Shown here piece by piece: positions 1-12,741 of a stretch of 33,257 nucleotides of DNA. A program made the position numbers and the translations under genes. A model generated the notes under the pieces. It was not told where the DNA came from. It saw only the letters and a program-made list of their open reading frames with translations, and ran no database searches. This stretch comes from a bacterium. GTDB lineage: Bacteria; Vulcanimicrobiota; Xenobia; Xenobiales; JADMJV01. The DNA lies in the NCBI GenBank assembly GCA_030149525.1, contig JASBRJ010000216.1:1-33257 (forward strand). Direction: 5' to 3'. The stretch's first letter is position 1. Every line of letters starts with the position of its first letter.

Positions 1-162
1 GTGGTTTGTCACATAAAGATTTTGGAGTCGAGGGCGTTCCAGAGGTGGTTGTGGGCTCACCGGTTTTTCCGCGGCGTGCCTGGCCGCACGTGAGGAAAAA
101 TCGGTGAGGCTACGGCCGCCTCTGGGGCGGTTTCGGCCCAAAATCTTTATGTGACAGACCAC
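1..162 (+). mobile_element. Palindromic MITE-like element / long RNA hairpin
   Basis: Bases 1-25 are the reverse complement of 138-162 with one wobble difference, and the match continues inward almost to the centre (loop about 80-85). Hand pairing gives about 75 bp with one bulge at base 26, another near 72-74, and mismatches at 34/130, 55/109 and 71/93. About a dozen further non-Watson-Crick positions (6/157, 28/136, 32/132, 33/131, 37/127, 38/126, 46/118, 49/115, 50/114, 53/111, 63/101 and one near 73/91) are all G-T when read on the plus strand and none is A-C. No protein is encoded. The size, full palindromy and sharp ends resemble a non-autonomous transposable element; the wobble bias suggests a structured plus-strand RNA. 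The outer end abuts a TA that forms part of the stop codon of the next gene. Family not identified. Confidence 0.7.
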
Positions 163-2390
163 TAGAGAGCCCTATCGAAGGCGGCAAGTCGGATGATACT
201 GATCACACCGTTTTGCCAACTCACGATGTCGGACGTACCGTCACCCGTGACGTCGCCCACTTCAAACCTTCGAAAATTGGCCGACACATTGGTCAGGTCG
301 GTAGTGCGAAGCGCTGTGCCGCCAATCGCAGGAACCGTGACTCCAAGAGCGCGCACTTCACCGGTTTCGAATCCGTCGAAGAACCTTTCTCCGGTGATCA
401 GCAAGCTCGGTGTGCGCCGGTTGGCGGCTTCGAGGAACATGCTCGACAGAGTGGAGGGTGCCAGCTCTCCGATGGTGAGAGGAGTTCCGCTGTCAAACTC
501 GTTTCCGTCCAGCAGATTGTTCAAAAGCAGGGCATTGGCGTTGCTGGAGCCTGGTTCAAGGTCACGAACCGCGACCAGAGCCGGCTGAACCTGACTGGTT
601 CGGCGGTTGACGACCACCGTGCCGGCAGGGCCCAGTTGCGCGTCGACTACCCGGGCATCGTTGTCGAGAGAGATACTTTTCAGTCGCTCCACCGACGACC
701 GACCCAGTCCCACGGACACTTTTAAGATATCGAGATTTCGGGAGTTCAAGCGATGGTGAAACAGATAGTCTCCGCGACCTTCCAGGTAGTCCCCGTCCTC
801 GATCAGATCATAGGAAAGTCTATTCACGGAAAACCGCGGCGTATTGGAATCCCTCGACTCGGGAGGCCCCACCAACACAGAAGTGAGGGAATTTTCCCGT
901 CCGCCATGGACCAATAACAGTCCTGAGGCATCGCTCATCTGCATCAATTTCGTGAGTTCGGTGCTCAGTGGCACGTTGGTCACCGAAGGGAAAAGTCGGA
1001 TCCCCCTCCTGTTCAGTGATGGACCGGCCACCAGGGCCAGTTGGTTCGAACCGACCGCGCCCACGGCAGCGTAGACGGTGCTGCCCACGGTGACAAATTT
1101 CACAAAGCCCTGATCGGCCCCGGCGAAAGGCAGCGGCACAACGAGCTCCTCTCGGGCGGGGTCCTGGAATGTGCCGTCGCCGTTGCCCAGATAGATGGCG
1201 ACCTTGCTGAAATCTGGTTGAGGCGGATTATCGTCTCCGGGCTCCTGGTCGGTGGGAAAAGCTGGTATTCCCACGATGTCGGTGCGTCCGTCCCCGTTGA
1301 TATCCCCCAGGCCATAGACGGACGAGAGCCCCTCCACGGTGTCCGGCAATACCGCGTTCTTCGAATACATGGTATCGAGAAATCCTCGCAGGACGGTGAC
1401 CGCAACTTGGGCGGGTGTGGTCCGGCGAAAATTGAGTAAACCCTGCAGCGTTGTGACACCCGCGTCGAAGCCTGTGATCTGTCCCAGGGTGTTCACTTCG
1501 ATGATCCCCAAGGGAGAAGCGGAGTAACTGAGCGCCAGGGTCACTTCTCTGCGAATGCCGTCGGAGAAGTCGCTAAAGGCTCTCATTTGCGCTCGAGCCC
1601 CGAAACTTTCCAATTCCAAGGCCCCCACCCGAAGCTGTCCGGTGGAGTCGGAAAAGAATAGATTCCCCGACGGGGTAGAATTGACAAACCGGGTCCTGAG
1701 CGGGGAAGTGGTGAGGTTTCCGAAGCTTGCCGAAATCCTCACGGAGTCCACTCCCAAGCGCAAACGAGCGTTATCTCCCAGCACCCCTCCCGCCATCAGT
1801 CCCGATCGGTTCTCCACAACGAAGGTGGCGGACCTGGTGACATCTCGAACGGTGTTGTCGTCGTAGGTGGCCAGGGCACGAAACTGGGTGGGTATGCCGA
1901 ACGGCGACGTGGCCGGCCCGGTAATCTCCAGTTTTTCAAGCCCTTCGGTGGGATCGGGATCGGGGTTGCGTACAATAAATTCCGAGCCGGAGGTAAGAGG
2001 GGGAAGTTGACCCCCCCAAATTTCCTTGACCTTGGCATCGTTATCGAGGTAATCGATCTGCACCTGGGTGCTGTCGGTGGGGATCTTCACGGAGATAACG
2101 GGAGCCACCTCAATCGGTGCCGACACAACTTCTTCCCCCGTCGACTTGGTCGACCGGACCCGGACGGTCTTGATAATCGGCGACACGTCCTTGGCCACCA
2201 CCGGCGAGTTGTCGAGAGTGGAAGCCAGGGTGAAGACAGCCTCATTCTGCACTTGAACCACCCCGTCGAGGTTTCCGGTGATCACCGAATCCGGCGACGA
2301 CCCGTCATTGCAACCCGAAACCGCAAGCATCGACAGACACAGCATTGAAGCCGAAAAAACTCTCCTAAAACCACCCTTAACACGACCCAT
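162..2390 (-). CDS. Lipoprotein with BIG2-like domains and FG-GAP/VCBS repeats
   Basis: A 742-residue exported protein. The chosen ATG gives a lipoprotein signal peptide with lipobox V-S-G-Cys27; upstream in-frame codons lack a signal and look non-coding. A GGAG lies about 11 nt before the start. Residues about 38-135 form a module also found in the lipoprotein at 3267-5234 (both contain QIDYLD). Residues about 150-235 and 255-335 resemble bacterial Ig-like (BIG2) domains. The rest contains FG-GAP/VCBS Ca-binding signatures (DINGDGRTD at 363-371, DVTGDGTSD at 713-721), suggesting an extracellular beta-propeller. Likely role: outer-membrane or surface-anchored adhesion or matrix protein; ligand unknown. 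The stop codon TAG takes its final G from the palindromic element at 1-162, so the original C terminus may have been different. Confidence 0.8.
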   Translation of the reverse strand: MGRVKGGFRRVFSASMLCLSMLAVSGCNDGSSPDSVITGNLDGVVQVQNEAVFTLASTLDNSPVVAKDVSPIIKTVRVRSTKSTGEEVVSAPIEVAPVISVKIPTDSTQVQIDYLDNDAKVKEIWGGQLPPLTSGSEFIVRNPDPDPTEGLEKLEITGPATSPFGIPTQFRALATYDDNTVRDVTRSATFVVENRSGLMAGGVLGDNARLRLGVDSVRISASFGNLTTSPLRTRFVNSTPSGNLFFSDSTGQLRVGALELESFGARAQMRAFSDFSDGIRREVTLALSYSASPLGIIEVNTLGQITGFDAGVTTLQGLLNFRRTTPAQVAVTVLRGFLDTMYSKNAVLPDTVEGLSSVYGLGDINGDGRTDIVGIPAFPTDQEPGDDNPPQPDFSKVAIYLGNGDGTFQDPAREELVVPLPFAGADQGFVKFVTVGSTVYAAVGAVGSNQLALVAGPSLNRRGIRLFPSVTNVPLSTELTKLMQMSDASGLLLVHGGRENSLTSVLVGPPESRDSNTPRFSVNRLSYDLIEDGDYLEGRGDYLFHHRLNSRNLDILKVSVGLGRSSVERLKSISLDNDARVVDAQLGPAGTVVVNRRTSQVQPALVAVRDLEPGSSNANALLLNNLLDGNEFDSGTPLTIGELAPSTLSSMFLEAANRRTPSLLITGERFFDGFETGEVRALGVTVPAIGGTALRTTDLTNVSANFRRFEVGDVTGDGTSDIVSWQNGVISIIRLAAFDRAL

Positions 2391-2521
2391 AACCCACCAC
2401 TCTCCAACGTTTTTTTGATTTTCGAGGAGCCCAGTTCGTTCAAGAGAGATTTCCACCTTTGGGGGGCCGCACCACACAACGGAGGCTGTGCGACGAGAAA
2501 AACTCCCATCGGGGCACGTCG

Positions 2522-2944
2522 TTACCCAAACATCGCCCAAGCAGCTCCGGCCGTTGCTAAAGCTGCTCCCCCACCAAATATCGCGAGTCCGGTGTTGCTG
2601 CCGCTGTCGGTGGTCATGGCGGCCAGTCCCAGAGACGTCAAACCCACCGTGGGAATGGCGGCGGCGGCTGCCACACCCAGCGCCACACCGGCTAGCGCAT
2701 GACCGGAGAACAAGCACTTGGCTGAACCCAAGGCTAGGGCGGCGGGGCCACCAATCCCTACGGCACCCATGCCACCCATCAGTCCTACACCCAGAATCGT
2801 TTCTCCTACGGAGCCAAAGGCAACTGAATCCGTCGGGGGGGTCGTTGAGGTCCCGGAGTCCGAAGGGTTGAAGTTTTCGGCAACGGCATTGGACTTGAGT
2901 GCACCGGGCAGGGGTCGTTGGAATTGACTGGATGAGATATTCAT
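2522..2944 (-). CDS. Small glycine-rich multi-helix membrane protein
   Basis: A 140-residue protein of unknown function. The first 45 residues are polar and rich in Ser, Thr and Pro. From about residue 46 the chain is almost entirely Gly, Ala, Val and Leu, with closely spaced glycines (GxxxG-type packing motifs such as GLMGGMGAVGIGG) forming perhaps three membrane segments up to the C terminus. A good ribosome site (AAGGA, 9 nt before ATG) supports the start. It lies 131 nt upstream of the lipoprotein gene on the same strand and could be cotranscribed with it. There is no cleavable signal peptide. It could be a glycine-zipper membrane protein or a pore-forming or bacteriocin-like peptide; nothing in the sequence decides between these. 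Confidence 0.65.
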   Translation of the reverse strand: MNISSSQFQRPLPGALKSNAVAENFNPSDSGTSTTPPTDSVAFGSVGETILGVGLMGGMGAVGIGGPAALALGSAKCLFSGHALAGVALGVAAAAAIPTVGLTSLGLAAMTTDSGSNTGLAIFGGGAALATAGAAWAMFG

Positions 2945-3266
2945 AGTTGGTATCCTTCTTATCTTTTATTGAAGATAAGGTAAGAACTCTAGGTCCAAAC
3001 GATATAGCCGAATTGTTAACCCGGGACCAGCTTCAGGAGGGACTTGGGAATACTAACCTCTGCTTCACAACTGTCACATTTTATTAATCTGAAGATGGTT
3101 TTCGTGCACTTCTCAAACAGGGTCGTCGGACACCTCGAAGACCCTCACCTACACTCCTGAATGACAAAAGGACTTCTCTTTGCTGTCGACAAAACTTGTG
3201 CCATAGGCAATCATGTGGCTCGTTGGGTGTGAAAGGCCACTACTTGGGACTGAAGAGGTGTAATCT
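2945..3266. promoter_or_regulatory. Divergent intergenic region (322 bp)
   Basis: This stretch separates the minus-strand glycine-rich gene from the plus-strand lipoprotein gene and must hold promoters for both. Apart from the inverted repeat at 2958-2979, I see no convincing -35/-10 pair, RNA gene or coding frame. It is noticeably more A+T-rich than the flanking genes. Confidence 0.5.
2958..2979 (-). promoter_or_regulatory. Perfect 8-bp inverted repeat in the leader of the glycine-rich gene
   Basis: CTTATCTT and AAGATAAG face each other across 6 nt. In the minus-strand transcript the 3' arm ends immediately before the AAGGA ribosome site of the gene starting at 2944. It could be a leader stem-loop that affects ribosome access, or a dimeric operator. 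Confidence 0.5.
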
Positions 3267-5234
3267 ATGGCTCGAAGTCTATTCTTGAATGCGCTCATCC
3301 TTGCTGCCATCGGCCTTTTTATCGGCTGTGGAAGCAGCAACTCTGATTTCTTTTTTGGGAATCAAGGGCAACAGTCCCCGCCGGTAAGTACTGTTGGTAG
3401 CATTCGATTAAATCAGGTGCTTCTGCGCTCGGTTCCCATGAGCGTCACTGACCAGCGCTTCCGGGGCTTCGATGTAACAGGTGTGGTCAGATACGGCCCA
3501 GTGAGCTTCCCGAAAGCTCCAACCATAGTCCTGGCCAATGTTCCCACAAATGTGGTCCGTTTACAGATAGACTATCTCGATGATGGTGTGTTGGTCGGCA
3601 CCGGGTCCCTGACTGTGGAAGTTCGACCGAACCAGACCACTGTGATCGAATCACCTGATTTCGTCGATCTCGAGCCTGCGAATCCGACGCCGAGTCCTTC
3701 TCCCACTGCGACTACTGCACCAACGCCTACTCCCACAGCGACGCCAACGCCAACGCCCACAGTTACCCCAACGCCAACTCCCACAGCCACACCAACGCCG
3801 ACGCCCACAGTAACCCCAACACCAACTCCCACAGTCACACCAACGCCAACGCCCACAGTTACCCCAACGCCAACTCCGAGCCCCAATGATGACGTGCAAG
3901 GCCAAGGTATCGTTAACTCCTCCACACTTGAGGTTTCGACTGCAAGCTTCCTTGGTCAAGGTATGGACGAAGGTGTGAAGGGTGCAGATTTAGCGCCCGA
4001 CCGGAAGATCGTGCTCGGAGGCAAAATCTCTAACACGACCTTTCCAGGAGTTATTCCCACCGAACTCACCTTGGGCCAACCCGCTTCCGGCGGCGCCATT
4101 TTTAGACTCAGTGGAGATGGACGGACGGTGGTATCTGTTACGCTCCTGGGAAGTGATGTCACCGATTTAGCTGTCCATCCCACCAGTGGAGAGATTTTGG
4201 TTGCAACTCCCGAAGCTGTTGTTCTTCTCAACGCAACGGCAGACGCTATCGTTTGGTCAGCAGGCAGCGGCGGCTCCAGGGTCGATATCGGAAGCGACGG
4301 GACCCTGGCGTACGTCAACGGCAACTCAACCGTGATTCTTTCTTCCAATCGAACCCAGACAGAAACGCTACAAGAAGGTGTCGATTACAGTGCCACGGAC
4401 GTGACTGACGTTTGTGTAGAACCCACAACCATGAGAGTTGTCGTCTCAGGATGGGAACAACGCGACGACAGCACCGGTAACGTAAGACAATGGCAGTCTC
4501 CGTGGTTGAAAGCATACTCTTACAACGGCGCTGCCGCTTGGACCGCCTACGACTTTAGCAACTCTCAAGCTGATGCGGAATCCCGTGGTTCAGATTCCAG
4601 GATGAATGTCGTTTCCAGAGGCGAGGATGGGCAAATTTACGCTGCCGGACAGTCTTCCGGTGGTGAGAGTGTGTTTCAGAGACTGCCTCAGGACATCTCC
4701 ACTAACGCCGGTTTAGTGGGGAACGACACCTATACGATACCCTCTAACCTGGGAGGGCCCAACATCACTTTTTACGGTCGCTTTAGTCCGGTCAACGGAA
4801 CTCTTCAAGCAGGCCAGATTGTGCTCACCCGCCTTATGAACGGAAGCGGAAACACTATCGTGCCAAGAGCTATTGCTGCAGACGGTTCCGGAAGGGTGTT
4901 TCTAGCTGGTAGCGCCAACGCTTCCCTGGCAAACAGGGACAATCTTATTATCAACGGCCAGAACATCGGAGGCTACTCAGGCCAAGATGGATTTATCTTG
5001 GTGGCAAGTTCAGACCTCTCAACACGAGAGTTGTGGACATCATTTACTACGGGCGGTCGAATGACCGGTCTTGCCCTAGCGGTAGACAGCGAGAAGGTCG
5101 TCTTTGCTGGACAAGGGCGTCAGAACGATGCTCAGACCGCATCGCCTTTCGTCACGGTGGAGCCGATTCAGAGTAGCTTCTCTAACGACACTAACGACAG
5201 GATGGGATTCTTCGCTGTTTTCAAAGCACCTTAA
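3267..5234 (+). CDS. Lipoprotein with Pro-Thr linker and beta-propeller-like C-terminal domain
   Basis: A 655-residue exported protein. The ATG is preceded by GAGG about 10 nt upstream. A signal peptide ends at the lipobox F-I-G-Cys21. Residues about 43-135 form the module shared with the protein at 162-2390 (QIDYLD at 100-105). Residues about 138-207 are a Pro-Thr-rich linker made of repeated 8-residue units (PTPTPTVT or PTPTPTAT), a typical wall or surface spacer. Residues about 215-655 contain repeated short hydrophobic strands with motifs such as [23 protein letters not shown] and VVFAGQGRQ, which fits SBBP/PQQ-like beta-propeller blades. Likely a surface-displayed protein, function unknown. 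It is a divergent relative of the neighbouring lipoprotein: same anchor module, different C-terminal head. Confidence 0.8.
3720..3884 (+). repeat. 24-bp tandem repeat encoding Pro-Thr linker
   Basis: About seven degenerate 24-bp units encode PTPTPTxT within the lipoprotein. They differ mainly at third codon positions, so the protein repeat is older than the last slippage event. The length may vary between strains. Confidence 0.8.
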
Positions 5235-5243
5235 CCGACGAAG

Positions 5244-5621
5244 TCAACCAGCCACCTGGAAATCGCTCCCCAGAAGCTGGGATTTGACATAGTCCATGAG
5301 GGGCGCGTGGGGGCGTAGATAACGGACCCCTATGTGCCACCTACCGTTTTTCTGTTTCTCATCTGCTCGCACTACGACCGCCCGGATCGACAAGGTTGTG
5401 ACCGACGGCACCTTCACTTCTACGGTGATGATCTCTCCCACATGGAGCATGGTGGGACTGGAGAGAAGACAACCTAGGAGAGAGACGTTCAAAACGCCGG
5501 CCGACTGCTCCTTACCTGTCCAGTGATGCACGGCCGCAGGGAAATACCAGTTCACTCGTGCTCTCTTTCGTCGTTCGGGAAACGCGGTTATCCCGCTCTC
5601 AATTGCGTTCATTGTTACCAT
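5244..5621 (-). CDS. PilZ domain protein (c-di-GMP binding)
   Basis: A 125-residue protein consisting essentially of one PilZ domain. The two hallmark motifs are present: RxxxR (Arg18 to Arg22 within RRKRAR) and N-x-S-x-x-G (Asn45, Ser47, Gly50), followed by the expected beta-strands. PilZ domains bind cyclic di-GMP and control motility, exopolysaccharide or secretion through partner proteins. No output domain is attached, so it probably acts by protein-protein contact. There are two possible starts, Met1 and Met4, and neither has a strong ribosome site. It ends 9 nt from the convergent lipoprotein gene and follows the two-TM protein gene on the same strand by 114 nt. Confidence 0.8.
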   Translation of the reverse strand: MVTMNAIESGITAFPERRKRARVNWYFPAAVHHWTGKEQSAGVLNVSLLGCLLSSPTMLHVGEIITVEVKVPSVTTLSIRAVVVRADEKQKNGRWHIGVRYLRPHAPLMDYVKSQLLGSDFQVAG

Positions 5622-5735
5622 CCAGTCCGGTGTTTTCTCTAGTTTGGATGTTCAGATGAGGAGCAAAGAGACACGAACGGCTCCCTTCAGCCCTATACCT
5701 TTGGGTGCAAAGAGTGGATAGACAGCCCGCCGAAA

Positions 5736-6221
5736 TTACAAGGAGTAGCTACTGGTTCGAGATTGACGCTGACGGTGTCTCGTCTTTCTGATGTGCTCGG
5801 CGAGAATATGGAACTGCTCTTTGCCGAGAAACAGCTCGGGCAACTCTACAAACTTCGAACCGTCGCTGATCAAAATCGTTTTGAAGCGGGTTTCGCCGGG
5901 TCCGGAGTACGCCATCTTGGCAATATCGACGGCAAACTCTTGACTCTCATCTTTGTGCTTGTACTCCAGAAGTCGACCCTTCACTCTGACCGTCCGCCCG
6001 GAATAGTGTCGAAGAAAAGCCAGGAGGCAGATCAGGATGGACAATCCCACGAGCAAGGGAATCCCCGCAAAAAGCCAACGGGTAGGATCACTTTGGTGAA
6101 ACTTGCGGAAGGCGTCTAGCGCGAAGACGATAAGCGCAGTCGCGGACAAAACAGGAACCACACTGTACAGAAGGAGTCTGGTGGTGACTCCGGTCTTGAA
6201 TGTTGTCCACTCAGTGTTCAT
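5736..6221 (-). CDS. Two-TM membrane protein with small C-terminal domain
   Basis: A 161-residue protein from the ATG at 6221; the open frame extends upstream to 6356, but that part overlaps the divergent PilZ gene and looks non-coding. Residues about 16-38 and 48-70 are hydrophobic membrane helices. The rest is a basic, beta-rich domain (strands around GRLLEYKHKDESQEF and FVELPELFLGK) that resembles a PH-like bPH domain, ending in a basic tail. An AGGGAG sits directly against the ATG, closer than ideal, so the start is uncertain. It lies between two PilZ genes, so it may belong to a c-di-GMP-linked envelope function; this rests on position only. Confidence 0.6.
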   Translation of the reverse strand: MNTEWTTFKTGVTTRLLLYSVVPVLSATALIVFALDAFRKFHQSDPTRWLFAGIPLLVGLSILICLLAFLRHYSGRTVRVKGRLLEYKHKDESQEFAVDIAKMAYSGPGETRFKTILISDGSKFVELPELFLGKEQFHILAEHIRKTRHRQRQSRTSSYSL

Positions 6222-7292: not shown

Positions 7293-7330
7293 GAAGCTGA
7301 ACCCTTTTGCGGGTTCAGCTTCGTTTTCTT
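7293..7330 (+). terminator. Rho-independent terminator (probably bidirectional)
   Basis: A perfect 12-bp stem (7293-7304 with 7311-7322, loop TTTTGC) is followed by a T-rich run. It lies between convergent genes. The A-run at 7281-7284 gives a weaker T-run on the minus strand, so it may also end the bpX operon. Confidence 0.9.
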
Positions 7331-9741
7331 TAGAGAAAGAATTTCCCCACCCGCCGCTGACTGGCAAGATCGGCGATGAGGAGGCGACCGCGATCATCGG
7401 AGATGATAGCCAGGTCCTCGTTGACGCGAACTTTGGCGGTCTTCGAGCCAGGTAGAGCCAAGGCGAGTTGTTTTTTGGGGTTGGCAGCCTCAAAAATACA
7501 GACTGAAAATCCATCCTCAGAGGTAGAATAGAAAACTCCGTAATTTTCGAAAAGCTCAACCCCCAGGGGATGCCCTCTATGGAACAGCGCCTGCCCCTTA
7601 TAACACCAGCTTTCCATCCTCTTGGAGAGAACCGCGCCACTCTTAGCAGCGAGAACAGCGGGGGCTCTGTCGTCAAGACCCCGAGTATTCTCAAGCTTCA
7701 TCTCAGGCGTCCGGTAAAAGTGAGCCACCTTGTCCAAAAGAACTCCTAGCCGACCCGCTCCGACCACAAGCTGTCGAGGTCGATTGGGTAGTTTGGTTTC
7801 AGAAAGTGCCTGCCATCCAGACTGTTCACCGGAAAGCAGTCGGGACAGGTCGATCTGATAGAGTGAAGTCCCAAGCCCTACGAGCCAGGCCAAGCCGTCA
7901 TGCGTGTCCGCGCAGATGTCCAGCGCGGCCGAACAGAGCGGTCGTGCCTTTCCGTCCATAAAGCAGCCAATTCGACTTCCAGATCGAGTGAGGAAGGCGC
8001 CACCCTTAAGAGGCACTGCCAGAGAATGACAAGGAAGCGAAAACTGTTGAGAACGCGCACCACCGGCCGATAATACAACCAAGCCCACATTTCCCAAAGC
8101 TACCAGAAACCGCCCGTCACCCAGGAAAGCGGCATCATAAATTGCCAGCCTTCCCGACTCTTCGACGACCTGGTGCCAGCGATCTAGTTGGAGCTTCGGC
8201 GGATCTTTGATCGTGGGCAGATCGACCTTAAGATACCAATCTTCGGATAAAGTCACCAGAAAGTCCACGGTCTTTCGGTCCCCCAAGGGCCAGGGGCTAT
8301 TCATCTGTCGCAACACTCTCCGAGCCGTGGTGGCTGCCCACTGCTGGATTTCAAGATCGCTTGTGCGCCCACCCGAGCGGGCCAGGATATTCAGTAATTT
8401 ACGACGGGTCGAAACTGTGACGGGACTCGTATCGTCGAGCCACCGTTTCAAATAGCCCGCGAGCCCCATCTGGCGGGTCACCTCGGGACTGGTGAGAATC
8501 AACGCCGCCGCATGAAACGCTTCCACATTTCCTACCCGAAGAGTGGTTTCCAACCAATCATCGTAGTCGGGAAGCTCCGGGCGGACAGACCAGCCTACCA
8601 GAACCGCTTCGCCGAACTGCCCGGCGCGGGCGAGGTCTTGAGCCCACACCACCCTGAAAGCGCGAGCAGCGTCTCTGTCCCTGCCCTCCAAAATGGTGAT
8701 AGCCAGAGCATGAACATAGTGACAGCGAGCCACCTGAAGAGCCTGCTCCACCTTGCCCGCCCGAAACCATAAAGCCACCTGAAGGGAGGCCGAAAGACCT
8801 TTGAGAGTCGCGATCTCGGCGGCTTTCTCATAGAGCCCGTGCTGCTCCAGGAGATCGACCGCTCCGTGGGCGTCGTCCAACAGTTCGGCCAGCACAAAGG
8901 CGGCCTCTTCGATGCGTCCTTCGCGTAGCAAGGCCTGATGGGCGTTACGATAGACGTTGCGCAACAAGTCCATTCCTGCGAAGGAGGTTCCAGTGGCGAT
9001 ACGATGGGGAAGCTTGGCCGTGAAGCTTAGGTCTTTGCGCGGTCTCAGACTGTTCAGGATGTCTCCCAATTTATTCGAAATCGCTGTGGCCGAATCGTCC
9101 AGAGGGACCGCGTATCGCAGAGCCTTATCCCAATCGCCCCGCTCGAAATAGGAAAGCATCCTGCTGATATAGTTCCGATCCGCCTTCGAGTGAAAGTAGG
9201 AGCCGAGAAGATCGAGGAAGCCCTGGATAGGATGGGACGATGTCTTGGCCTCCGGCTCTCGTTCCCATCTCTGCAGGTAGTCGCTTTGCTCCTGAGCAGG
9301 CTTCGGTATGGCTGTAAAAACCTCTCGAACATCGGCCTTGGCTTGCGGGCGTGCAATCAGTTCCGGTTCGCCGGTAACTTCTCCCAAAGGGCTCCCTTTT
9401 CGAAAATCGAGTTCCGAGTGGTCCCAAAGCCCGGCCAGTTCTACCTCTTTCAATCCGGCCACGGGGTGATTCCAGAGCTCTCCTCCCCACTTCAGGACCA
9501 ATTCGCCGGGGGCGGGCCGACCGGCTGGGAAAGAAGCCCAACCTTCGTGTCTTCTTAGGACCGGGAGGACAGCGAGTCGCTCGGCTAGGTATGCCTGTGG
9601 CCCTGGAAAGAGCAACAACCATCCCTCTCTTGCCCAGAGCAGTCTTGAACCCTCGCACCAATGCTCAAGGAGTCTCCGGGAACTGCAGACCGAAGGTGGA
9701 AACCACAGCCCGTCAGCCTCTATACGGCCCCGCCATTTCAA
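7330..9741 (-). CDS. bpX6-like domain + alpha-solenoid + beta-propeller protein
   Basis: An 803-residue cytoplasmic protein, last gene of the MoxR operon. Residues 1 to about 75 match my memory of the bpX6 domain (RG near the start, GLWFPP, then LLLFPGP). Residues about 170-450 are tandem helical hairpins (for example EEAAFVLAELLDDAHGAVDLL) of solenoid type, as in coat proteins. Residues about 505-803 are repeated beta-strands of a beta-propeller. In the described MoxR-vWA-beta-propeller ternary systems such proteins are thought to be scaffolds or recognition modules for the MoxR-vWA chaperone pair, possibly in biological conflict. The start is a TTG whose first two bases overlap the preceding stop (TTGA), implying translational coupling. 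The bpX6 label is from family recall; domain boundaries are rough. Confidence 0.75.
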   Translation of the reverse strand: MKWRGRIEADGLWFPPSVCSSRRLLEHWCEGSRLLWAREGWLLLFPGPQAYLAERLAVLPVLRRHEGWASFPAGRPAPGELVLKWGGELWNHPVAGLKEVELAGLWDHSELDFRKGSPLGEVTGEPELIARPQAKADVREVFTAIPKPAQEQSDYLQRWEREPEAKTSSHPIQGFLDLLGSYFHSKADRNYISRMLSYFERGDWDKALRYAVPLDDSATAISNKLGDILNSLRPRKDLSFTAKLPHRIATGTSFAGMDLLRNVYRNAHQALLREGRIEEAAFVLAELLDDAHGAVDLLEQHGLYEKAAEIATLKGLSASLQVALWFRAGKVEQALQVARCHYVHALAITILEGRDRDAARAFRVVWAQDLARAGQFGEAVLVGWSVRPELPDYDDWLETTLRVGNVEAFHAAALILTSPEVTRQMGLAGYLKRWLDDTSPVTVSTRRKLLNILARSGGRTSDLEIQQWAATTARRVLRQMNSPWPLGDRKTVDFLVTLSEDWYLKVDLPTIKDPPKLQLDRWHQVVEESGRLAIYDAAFLGDGRFLVALGNVGLVVLSAGGARSQQFSLPCHSLAVPLKGGAFLTRSGSRIGCFMDGKARPLCSAALDICADTHDGLAWLVGLGTSLYQIDLSRLLSGEQSGWQALSETKLPNRPRQLVVGAGRLGVLLDKVAHFYRTPEMKLENTRGLDDRAPAVLAAKSGAVLSKRMESWCYKGQALFHRGHPLGVELFENYGVFYSTSEDGFSVCIFEAANPKKQLALALPGSKTAKVRVNEDLAIISDDRGRLLIADLASQRRVGKFFL

Positions 9742-11342
9742 ACTTCACCCCTCCAAATGACGGCCGAATGCTCAAGATCGTAGCAGCCGAAATTGCCGCT
9801 TCGGGTGCGATAGGCGATTCGACCGTTGGGATGAACCACACAACTTTCCACAGGCTCACCTAGATCCAGGGACTCGCGAGTGATCGGCCCCTGTAGCATC
9901 AGCCAACCGTTAGTGTCCACGATCAAGAGCGGCCCGCGTTTATAGTCTGCGTAGAGCCCCACCACGTTTCCGAGAGCCTGGAGTTCAGCGTAGCCTTTCC
10001 CCTGGTGAATCCGCCACCAGGAGTCTTGGACATGAGTGGCCACGCAATATCCTAGACCCTGGACTCCGTGCTCGTAGCTTCGAGCGAGAAAGGCTTTGGC
10101 CGGCTGCTCGTGATCCAATTTGGAAATCGCTCTACCCGTAGAATTCAAAACGCGACCAGTCTCGTCGACCAAGATTGTGGAATCACCCAACGCGCAACCA
10201 CCTGTCACGCGGGTGAAAAAAAGCGGCTCGTCGATGAGCCAATAGAGGGAATCGGCAATCCAGACAGCCCAGTCGTCATTGCTCTTAAAACAGTGCCCTA
10301 ACGGCTGCTCTCCTATCTGCGGAGCCTCCACCCGATAGCACTCTCCTTCGCCTCCCTGAGAGGGGTTGAGACGGCGCACCATCCAATGCCCGTCGGATTC
10401 CAGCACAACGATAATCGCGCGTCTCACCAGGCTCACGGCGATCACCCTACCCTCCCAAGGCACCGGATAGACTCGAGCCCGTCCGGGCGGCTCGTTCAAC
10501 GACGACGGCAGTGGAATCGTTGTAACAGAACGATTGGAGACGATCAGAAGCTTCTGAGCACAGGCCGAAAAAGCCAAACTCCCCTTCTGCACCGGCGTGA
10601 CGGGCTTCTCACGAGCGGGTAGTTCCCATACCATCGGGCTTCGCAAAAGTCTCACAGCTTGCTTGGATGCCGGGAGTTCCAACTCCAATCGACGACCGAA
10701 AGCCCGCAGCTCTACAAGATTCGTCCCGATCTGCTCTAGAGAAATTTGACGAACATCGCGAGGAATTTGCGAACCCCAGGAAAGCCCTCCCACACACCAT
10801 GTCTCCAAAGAATCCATACGCTCAGGTGGACGCCGGGGAGGGTCGACGGAGCGCGCTTTCAGAAAGGTGTGCAACTCATCGGCTGCAAGCTTGTCGTAGC
10901 CTCGTTCCGGCTCCTGAACAACTCCCCAGTAAAACTGTCCGCCGCTATCCAAACACTTCTTCTGGAGCCAGAACAGAATAGCCAGCTGGACCACTCGGCA
11001 CCCTCCCAATTGCTCGGGCCCGGCGTCTACCCAAACCCAAAGAGAACGGGCCGCTTGATGGGACTCTTTCGCGAGGTCCCAAAATCCTAGCTCGCCTTCG
11101 TCGGCCCGACGCACAAACTCCTCGGGGTAGCTCTGGGCAAGAGCCCATTCGGAAACGACCAATCGTTCCCACGGCCCCTTGCTCACCAACCCGGACCAAC
11201 CGGCCGGCTCTCCGCTCCTCACCGCCGTAGTCGACAAAGGGAGGCCCCGATCCAGGCAATTCATAAGACGCCCTAAATCGGCACGGACGTCGGGCGCCAA
11301 AAAATCAAGCTGCTCCCACCAGGCTACGGGAGTCTGTTTCAA
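9738..11342 (-). CDS. Degenerate vWA + beta-propeller protein of the MoxR ternary system
   Basis: A 534-residue protein. Residues about 95-185 read as a von Willebrand A-type fold: a hydrophobic strand LWVWV leads into DAGPEQ (106-111), where a canonical MIDAS would have DxSxS, followed by a helix and the strand FYWGVVQ (137-143). Only the first Asp of the metal site is kept, so metal binding is doubtful. From about residue 250 to the end, the chain is a series of short beta-strands consistent with a beta-propeller. In ternary systems the vWA protein partners the MoxR ATPase, so this is the likely MoxR client or adaptor. The start is TTG within the TTGA overlap with the previous gene's stop, and its own stop forms the next TTGA. 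Confidence 0.75.
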   Translation of the reverse strand: MKQTPVAWWEQLDFLAPDVRADLGRLMNCLDRGLPLSTTAVRSGEPAGWSGLVSKGPWERLVVSEWALAQSYPEEFVRRADEGELGFWDLAKESHQAARSLWVWVDAGPEQLGGCRVVQLAILFWLQKKCLDSGGQFYWGVVQEPERGYDKLAADELHTFLKARSVDPPRRPPERMDSLETWCVGGLSWGSQIPRDVRQISLEQIGTNLVELRAFGRRLELELPASKQAVRLLRSPMVWELPAREKPVTPVQKGSLAFSACAQKLLIVSNRSVTTIPLPSSLNEPPGRARVYPVPWEGRVIAVSLVRRAIIVVLESDGHWMVRRLNPSQGGEGECYRVEAPQIGEQPLGHCFKSNDDWAVWIADSLYWLIDEPLFFTRVTGGCALGDSTILVDETGRVLNSTGRAISKLDHEQPAKAFLARSYEHGVQGLGYCVATHVQDSWWRIHQGKGYAELQALGNVVGLYADYKRGPLLIVDTNGWLMLQGPITRESLDLGEPVESCVVHPNGRIAYRTRSGNFGCYDLEHSAVIWRGEV

Positions 11343-11677
11343 AGGACCCAGGCCTCACTCATCCCCAAAACTCTACCGTCAGGTAAAAGCAGCCAGGGGG
11401 GCTCCCCCAACTTCGTCAGTCCGGCGACAATCCAAGAGATTGGCAGTTCCGGTTCCCACAGAGTAGGAAGATAGAGATTGCCCTTTCGACCCAAAAAGAC
11501 TGCGCCGTCGACCCATGGCGGCTCTTCCCCCAGCGCTACCACGAGGTCATCGCACTCAACAGCTTGCAGGCCACCTCTCTGCAAAAGCTTTCGCCGCAGC
11601 TCGTGCCCTGCCGCGCCTTCGGCCAAACAACCCTTTACTTCGAGAGGCTGAGAGCGCTTCCGCCAGGTGAGCTTCAT
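11339..11677 (-). CDS. bpX5-like small protein of the MoxR ternary system
   Basis: A 112-residue cytoplasmic protein between the MoxR and vWA genes. The pattern WRKR near the start, PPWVDGAVFLG in the middle and LYLPT after it matches my recall of the bpX5 domain, a short accessory component of MoxR-vWA-beta-propeller systems. No catalytic motif, signal or membrane segment is present. It starts with ATG inside an ATGA overlap with the MoxR stop and ends in a TTGA overlap with the vWA gene, so it is translated together with both. The family assignment is from motif memory only; the operon position supports it. Confidence 0.7.
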   Translation of the reverse strand: MKLTWRKRSQPLEVKGCLAEGAAGHELRRKLLQRGGLQAVECDDLVVALGEEPPWVDGAVFLGRKGNLYLPTLWEPELPISWIVAGLTKLGEPPWLLLPDGRVLGMSEAWVL

Positions 11678-12741
11678 GAGAGGCTGGACTTCAGTCTCTC
11701 CCGCAACTGAGCAAGCTCCGCCGGCAGATCGGTCTCGGAAAAGTTGGCGTCGATATCTCGCAGAACCCCCTCAACCCGCAAGCTGTCCACCGGTGGAGTC
11801 AAGGCCTTCTCACCTTCCTCTGTTAGCATGCGAGCCCGTACCTGAAGCGCCGCCGAAGCGTCTTCTGCCAAATGATGAAGAGCGGGGTTGTCGGTTTGGC
11901 TCAGCAACTCCCTTAGACAGCGCCGAGCCAGTTTCTGGTCGTCTTCCGTGGGAACAGCCAGAATTAACGGCCAGAGGTCTTCAGGCCCAGCTTTCTCCCG
12001 TCCGGAAATGGCTGCGGCGGCGGCGATGAGGTTCTGAGCGCGCACAGCGCGACGATCAGAAAGGTTGATCCCCTCCCGGCGCAATTTCCGAATAGCCTGG
12101 GCCAGAATGGGCTGCACTTCCTTGAGGTCAACGCTCTCAGCTTGAGTGGAAAGCTCGTCCAACACGTTCAGATCTCCTGCGCTCAATTCCACCTTCTCCC
12201 GACCGCCTGAGAGCATCTCTTCCAAGAGAGAGTCACTCACCGGATGCAGGAAACAACGCACCAAGAAGCGGTCGGCGAAAGCTGCCAGACTCTCCCCCTC
12301 GGGCAGGCTGTTACTGGCTCCCACACACACTCTCAAGGGGCACTTCAGCCGAGTGTTTCCTCGTCGGTAGACTCGTTCGTTCAAAAGGGTCAGGAGAGTG
12401 TTGAGGATGGCCGTAGACCCCGCGAAGACCTCATCGAGAAAGGCAACCTCAGCCTCCGGCAGCATCCCATCTGTGGCCGTTTCCAACACCCCGTCTTTGA
12501 GCTTGCGCAGATCGGTTGGCCCGAACAACTCCGAAGGTTCGGAGAACTTGCCCAGCAAATATTCAAAGTAGTTTCCGCCCAGGCCACGCGCCACCCGTCG
12601 AGCCGCTTCACTCTTGGCTGTCCCCGGGGGACCGATTAAGAGCACGTGTTCTCGAGCCACCGCCGCCAAAACGATAGCTTCCACCACCGGCCGGCGTTCC
12701 ACCAGACCCTGGCTACACTGTTCGATGAGGGTAGAGATCAT
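11674..12741 (-). CDS. MoxR-family AAA+ ATPase
   Basis: A 355-residue AAA+ ATPase of the MoxR/RavA class. Walker A is GPPGTAKS (37-44), Walker B is AFLDEVF (100-106, Asp103 and Glu104), sensor 1 is at GASNSLPEG (Asn144), and an arginine-finger-type Arg sits in ADRFL (Arg158). The helical lid and a C-terminal helical tail follow. MoxR ATPases act as hexameric chaperones that, with vWA proteins, remodel or load metals into targets. Here it is cotranscribed with bpX5-like, vWA-propeller and bpX6-like proteins, which defines the ternary system. The start codon overlaps the stop of the secreted-protein gene upstream (ATGA), which is unusual for a cytoplasmic ATPase. All residues needed for ATP hydrolysis seem present. 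Confidence 0.9.
   Translation of the reverse strand: MISTLIEQCSQGLVERRPVVEAIVLAAVAREHVLLIGPPGTAKSEAARRVARGLGGNYFEYLLGKFSEPSELFGPTDLRKLKDGVLETATDGMLPEAEVAFLDEVFAGSTAILNTLLTLLNERVYRRGNTRLKCPLRVCVGASNSLPEGESLAAFADRFLVRCFLHPVSDSLLEEMLSGGREKVELSAGDLNVLDELSTQAESVDLKEVQPILAQAIRKLRREGINLSDRRAVRAQNLIAAAAAISGREKAGPEDLWPLILAVPTEDDQKLARRCLRELLSQTDNPALHHLAEDASAALQVRARMLTEEGEKALTPPVDSLRVEGVLRDIDANFSETDLPAELAQLRERLKSSLS

What the first reader, a model, noticed from the sequence alone, without database searches (positions are those of the whole stretch)
1..162. Palindromic element whose non-canonical pairs are all G-U on one strand
Seen: the 162 bases fold almost end to end. In my hand alignment about a dozen arm differences are transitions, and every one gives G-T on the plus strand with no A-C. 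Neutral drift of a DNA palindrome should give both kinds about equally. Inference: a plus-strand RNA hairpin is (or was) under selection, antisense to the lipoprotein gene, making this more than a dead MITE; a possible small RNA or a structured mobile RNA-encoding element. The alternative is strand-biased cytosine deamination.
Basis: partly seen in the sequence, partly recalled or inferred. Interest (0 to 1): 0.75.

Follow-up and report, generated by a model that had tools for sequence, protein, structure and literature searches.

The report
Mobile palindrome with one-sided wobble pairs
The 162 bases are one of about 40 copies of a small parasitic DNA element moved by a common type of bacterial jumping gene; unusually, one of its two strands has kept an almost perfect hairpin through G-U pairs, which suggests that the hairpin of that strand mattered to the element.

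Summary
An energy-free palindrome alignment of window 1-162 gives 64 Watson-Crick pairs, 12 G-T, 0 A-C and 3 transversions; the + strand folds at -128.4 kcal/mol, the - strand at -87.5. The element is a MITE of the IS630/Tc1-mariner group: about 40 copies (many seen as half-copies cut by contig ends) in this genome, none found in sampled relatives, flanked by CTA...TAG (TA duplication in a CTAG target), with terminal repeats like those of IS630 transposase elements in the same genome. A second subfamily (B, 79% identical, 2 copies) has the same asymmetry, partly at different pairs: 17 distinct G-U pairs typical of a subfamily, no A-C, whereas changes confined to some copies split about 7:6. 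That fits past selection for pairing of one strand, relaxed in dead copies, better than strand-biased deamination; the numbers are small and partly hand-assigned. The Correia MITE, used as control, has no such asymmetry. Insertions are not oriented relative to host genes (18:16), no promoter-like site was found and no RNA data exist, so RNA is inferred, not shown. Verdict: a new member of a known kind (IS630 MITE) with an unusual strand-specific hairpin; 'small RNA' is unproven.

The parts
1..162 (+). IS630-type MITE, subfamily A, complete copy; also the end of contig C103
   Evidence: about 57 places with near-identical sequence in the same genome
1..25 (+). left terminal inverted repeat, GTGGTTTGTCACATAAAGATTTTGG
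   Evidence: pairs with 138-162; shares GTGGTYTGTCA with the ends of IS630 elements on contigs C97, C130, C92, C315, C356
138..162 (-). right terminal inverted repeat, GTGGTCTGTCACATAAAGATTTTGG read on the - strand
26..62 (+). left inner arm, holds most of the G-U partners (T28, G32, G33, T37, T38, T46, T49, T50, G53)
   Evidence: pair lists
102..137 (+). right inner arm, partner of 26-62
   Evidence: pair lists
63..101 (+). hairpin tip with a conserved internal loop (71-73 with 92-93) and 6-base loop; 35 of 39 bases identical in subfamilies A and B against 54 of 73 in the arms
163..164 (.). TA target duplication (right copy); with G165 the rest of the CTAG target
   Evidence: flanks of the complete copies: CTA on the left, TAG on the right in nearly all
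162..2717 (-).

Best explanation
It is a non-autonomous DNA transposon (MITE) of the IS630/Tc1-mariner group. IS630 transposase made in trans by elements of the same genome recognises the GTGGTYTGTCA ends, cuts the element out and inserts it at the TA of CTAG, duplicating TA. Shown by sequence: copies, ends, target, partner transposases. Inferred: mobilisation by those transposases. In addition, the source lineage that gave rise to the copies was under selection for pairing of one strand, so that transitions leaving a G-U on the + strand were kept and those leaving A-C were lost; that hairpin is most likely the RNA of the + strand (a 160-nt double-stranded hairpin made when the source copy is transcribed), while single-stranded DNA is possible. 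Single dead copies have lost this constraint.
For: MITE: at least 40 copies at 96-100% identity; CTA/TAG flanks; IS630-family transposase elements in the genome with the same ends; known CTAG preference of IS630 (Tenzen and Ohtsubo 1991, listed in PMC2170065). Strand selection: 12 G-T: 0 A-C here; subfamily B, 79% identical, 12:1 and 11:2; 17 distinct G-U pairs typical of A or B (5 shared, 6 only A, 6 only B) with 0 A-C, versus 7:6 among changes confined to some copies, Fisher p = 0.003 to 0.005. Recent changes show no + strand C>T or keto bias. Subfamily-typical wobbles include A/G as well as C/T differences, so cytosine deamination alone does not account for them. Correia MITEs as control: 1-3 G-T, 1-3 A-C. 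The tip of the hairpin is better conserved than the arms.
Against: No transcript, promoter-like site or Rfam family. Insertions lie in both orientations to neighbouring genes (18:16), so host mRNAs carry either strand. Only two subfamilies in one genome, thus few independent events; the fixed/polymorphic division was partly assigned by hand, and A-C at pair 13/150 did spread to about half the copies. Covariation counts alone do not exceed shuffles. One copy (L112) shows that an arm can be rewritten from the other, so paired double changes are not evidence of selection.
Confidence: 0.58

Rival explanations
1. Ordinary IS630 MITE; the G-U bias came from strand-biased mutation (C to T, G/T-ward) while the source copies of A and B sat for long on the same replication or transcription strand.
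For: C>T on the + strand gives exactly G-U; several subfamily-typical wobbles are C/T differences. Such skews exist in many bacteria (own knowledge).
Against: Recent changes are not biased. 17 of 17 has probability 0.001 even at a 2:1 bias. Both subfamilies need the same orientation. Several wobbles are A/G differences. The skew of the rest of the window is small (GC skew -0.05, TA skew -0.04).
Confidence: 0.22
2. Selection acts on a single-stranded DNA hairpin of the + strand (for instance during replication or excision), not on RNA.
For: The + strand is also the better DNA hairpin, -65.8 against -48.1 kcal/mol. IS transposition needs no RNA.
Against: IS630/Tc1-mariner transposition uses double-strand cleavage at the ends, by cut and paste (PMC2170065), and copies lie in both orientations to genes, so neither strand is privileged by position.
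Confidence: 0.12
3. Chance in the founder, inherited by all copies.
For: Most G-U pairs are shared by all A copies, so they are one history; 5 of them are shared with B.
Against: 12:0 alone has p = 0.0005; 6 A-only and 6 B-only G-U pairs arose separately, without a subfamily-typical A-C.
Confidence: 0.08

Closest known systems
RUP of Streptococcus pneumoniae (MITE of IS630-Spn1)
   Same: short, no coding capacity, TA target, ends like a resident IS630, transcript predicted as one long stem-loop (PMC2229807, PMC3049150)
   Different: 107 bp, other sequence; strand-specific G-U asymmetry not reported in the passages read and not tested here
Correia/NEMIS elements of Neisseria
   Same: about 155 bp, TA termini, long hairpin, RNA proposed to be cut by RNase III (PMC2229807)
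   Different: no asymmetry of G-T over A-C in six copies (1-3 against 1-3) and nearly equal fold energies of both strands
QMITE1/QMITE2 of Coxiella burnetii
   Same: MITEs whose copies give transcribed, very stable hairpin sRNAs (PMC5896051)
   Different: other target duplications; transcription was shown there, not here
ERIC of enterobacteria
   Same: 127 bp palindromic repeat with TA termini
   Different: weaker palindrome; 4 G-T against 1 A-C with 17 transversions in one sequence, too few to compare

Membership tests
MITE mobilised by IS630 (ITm group) | multiple near-identical copies without a coding gene, under 300 bp | tested here: met
   162 bp, about 40 copies
MITE mobilised by IS630 (ITm group) | TA target duplication, CTAG target | tested here: met
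   CTA on the left, TAG on the right of nearly all complete copies
MITE mobilised by IS630 (ITm group) | terminal repeats shared with an IS630 element in the genome | tested here: met
   GTGGTYTGTCA at ends of the C97- and C130-type elements, whose ORFs match NCBIfam NF033545 and Pfam DDE_3
MITE mobilised by IS630 (ITm group) | transposition by that transposase | not testable with these tools
   needs an assay
structured small RNA | match to a known RNA family | tested here: not met
   no Rfam match at E up to 1 in window 1-6000
structured small RNA | own promoter or transcript | tested here: inconclusive
   no sigma-70-like site in 1-400, other promoter types not covered; no RNA data
structured small RNA | strand-specific conservation of pairing | tested here: met
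   17 G-U to 0 A-C typical of subfamilies, 7:6 among recent changes

The most novel reading that the evidence does not exclude
An IS630-type MITE whose own + strand hairpin RNA is needed for its spread or for being tolerated by the host, so that the element has been selected as an RNA hairpin while G-U pairs keep its DNA from being a perfect, unstable palindrome.
Probability: 0.25. Interest if true: 0.75.

Novelty: new member of a known kind. Interest (0 to 1): 0.42.

Why it matters
MITE hairpins are usually treated as by-products of inverted ends. A fixed-versus-recent comparison of G-U and A-C pairs gives a simple test of which strand, if any, has been selected, and it can be run on every palindromic repeat family in sequenced genomes. 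Here it points to selection on one strand; in Correia elements the pairs show no such asymmetry.

Tried and rejected
Exact-pattern scan of genome contigs with a 17-base end found 43 loci from many phyla, taken as chance. BLAST, TIR patterns and a covariance model of the inner hairpin found no relative in up to 147 genomes of the phylum; the one weak hit (L009, 29 bases) looks like chance. Plasmids and viral contigs had no match. The relative G005 has a multi-copy IS630 with ends GTGGTCCGTCA but no MITE was found with them. A protein-coding role was rejected: the subfamilies differ by indels. Terminator function: no T-run after the end of the stem. A role of the + strand in host mRNAs is unlikely given the 18:16 orientation. 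attC, REP/IS200 and group II intron readings were considered and not pursued because the flanks show a TA duplication and IS630 ends.

Full report
Observation. Window 1-162 is an almost complete palindrome. As + strand RNA it folds at -128.4 kcal/mol (200 shuffles: mean -55.7, z -17.2), as - strand at -87.5 (z -12.4). With an alignment to its own reverse complement in which A/G and C/T differences score alike, there are 64 Watson-Crick pairs, 12 G-T, no A-C and 3 transversions. The claim therefore does not depend on the energy model.

What it is. The same sequence occurs at about 57 places of the genome: 15 complete or nearly complete copies at 96-100% identity, a truncated copy, a deletion copy and about 40 half-copies that stop at contig ends, hence roughly 40 copies in all. 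The window itself starts at the first base of a copy, so its left flank is unknown. Complete copies are flanked by CTA and TAG: a TA duplication within CTAG, the target known for IS630 (title of Tenzen and Ohtsubo 1991 in the reference list of PMC2170065). The genome holds elements with IS630-family transposase ORFs (C97; C130 with the partial ends on C92, C315 and C356) that begin with the same GTGGTYTGTCA. The outer repeat of subfamily A resembles that of C97 (GTCACA...), that of subfamily B resembles C130 (GTCAAT...); this is by eye. So the element is a MITE of the IS630/Tc1-mariner group, restricted to this genome among those searched.

Second subfamily. Two copies, C368:36953-37113 and C274:20909-21069, are 79% identical to A and 96% to each other. 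They also fold better on the same strand (-115.1 and -107.0 against -85.9 and -80.4) and have 12 G-T: 1 A-C and 11: 2. Aligned pair by pair with A, five G-U pairs are shared, six are typical of A only and six of B only (counted by hand from the lists). No A-C pair is typical of either; the one at 13/150 is polymorphic in A and in B.

Selection or mutation. Changes present in only some copies: making G-U, sites 58, 70, 96, 99, 119, 132 in A and 157 in one B copy; making A-C, sites 22, 25, 68, 150 in A and one in each B copy. That is about 7:6, against 17:0 for subfamily-typical pairs; Fisher p = 0.003, or 0.005 with 6:5. Recent changes toward G or T on the + strand (7) about equal those toward A or C (about 8), so no strand-biased deamination is visible in the copies. 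A constant mutational bias of 2:1 would give 17 of 17 with probability 0.001. Subfamily-typical wobbles include A/G differences (59/105, 28/136, 23/140) besides C/T ones. These points favour selection for pairing of one strand in the source lineage. Caveats: two lineages only, hand assignment, polarity by majority. The pair at 6/157 is itself polymorphic in A; without it the count is 16:0. The general covariation count is not significant, and copy L112, whose right arm is the exact reverse complement of the left arm, shows that arms can be rewritten, so double changes prove nothing.

Control. Six Correia elements from viral contigs have 1-3 G-T and 1-3 A-C pairs and nearly equal fold energies on both strands. 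The asymmetry is therefore not a general property of MITE hairpins. One ERIC sequence has 4:1, too few.

Surroundings. The 851-aa FG-GAP protein gene on the - strand ends with TAG made of the TA duplication and the last base of the element. This is common: by a simple codon-usage gene finder, in 22 cases the neighbouring gene stops exactly at the junction, 12 with the gene running into the + strand and 10 into the - strand; within 60 bases the numbers are 18 and 16 (counted by hand). In-frame TAG cannot occur within a gene, so these are native stops that the insertion leaves intact. In the window only 2 of 32 CTAG sites are stop codons. Orientation to host genes is thus random, and a role of the + strand in host mRNAs is unlikely.

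Mechanism. Shown: MITE anatomy, target, copy number, G-U asymmetry in two subfamilies. Inferred: mobilisation in trans; selection on one strand; RNA as the selected form. RNA is preferred because IS630-group transposition works on double-stranded ends (PMC2170065) and because MITE transcripts are known to fold and to be processed (PMC2229807, PMC5896051), but the + strand is also the better single-stranded DNA hairpin, and no promoter-like site or Rfam match was found.

Noticed in passing
window 162-165 and about 22 junctions in other contigs: Insertions fall very often exactly at a C-TAG stop codon, which the TA duplication restores; far more often than CTAG sites in the window are stops (2 of 32).
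   Followed up: partly
L112:1402-1529 (G000:C5): Chimeric copy: the right arm is the exact reverse complement of the left arm, the left end is missing, and a CTAG lies at the truncation point (C40 to T).
   Followed up: partly
L160:1-268 (G000:C92): A short deletion derivative with both terminal repeats lies directly against the right end of an IS630 element, sharing CTAG.
   Followed up: no
L005:462-622 and L154:654-814: The only two complete copies of subfamily B; one lies about 0.9 kb from an A copy.
   Followed up: yes
L146:1080-1193 (G000:C130): The IS630 element has a hairpin (CATAGCCTCCGGCG...CGTCGGAGGTTGTGCTATG) directly at the start codon of its first ORF, possibly translational control.
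   Followed up: no
L173-L177 (relative G005): A multi-copy IS630 with ends GTGGTCCGTCA and CTAG targets breaks the assembly of this relative; no MITE with these ends was found.
   Followed up: partly
window 7330-12741: Genes of a MoxR-vWA-beta-propeller ternary system (bpX6, bpMoxR).
   Followed up: no
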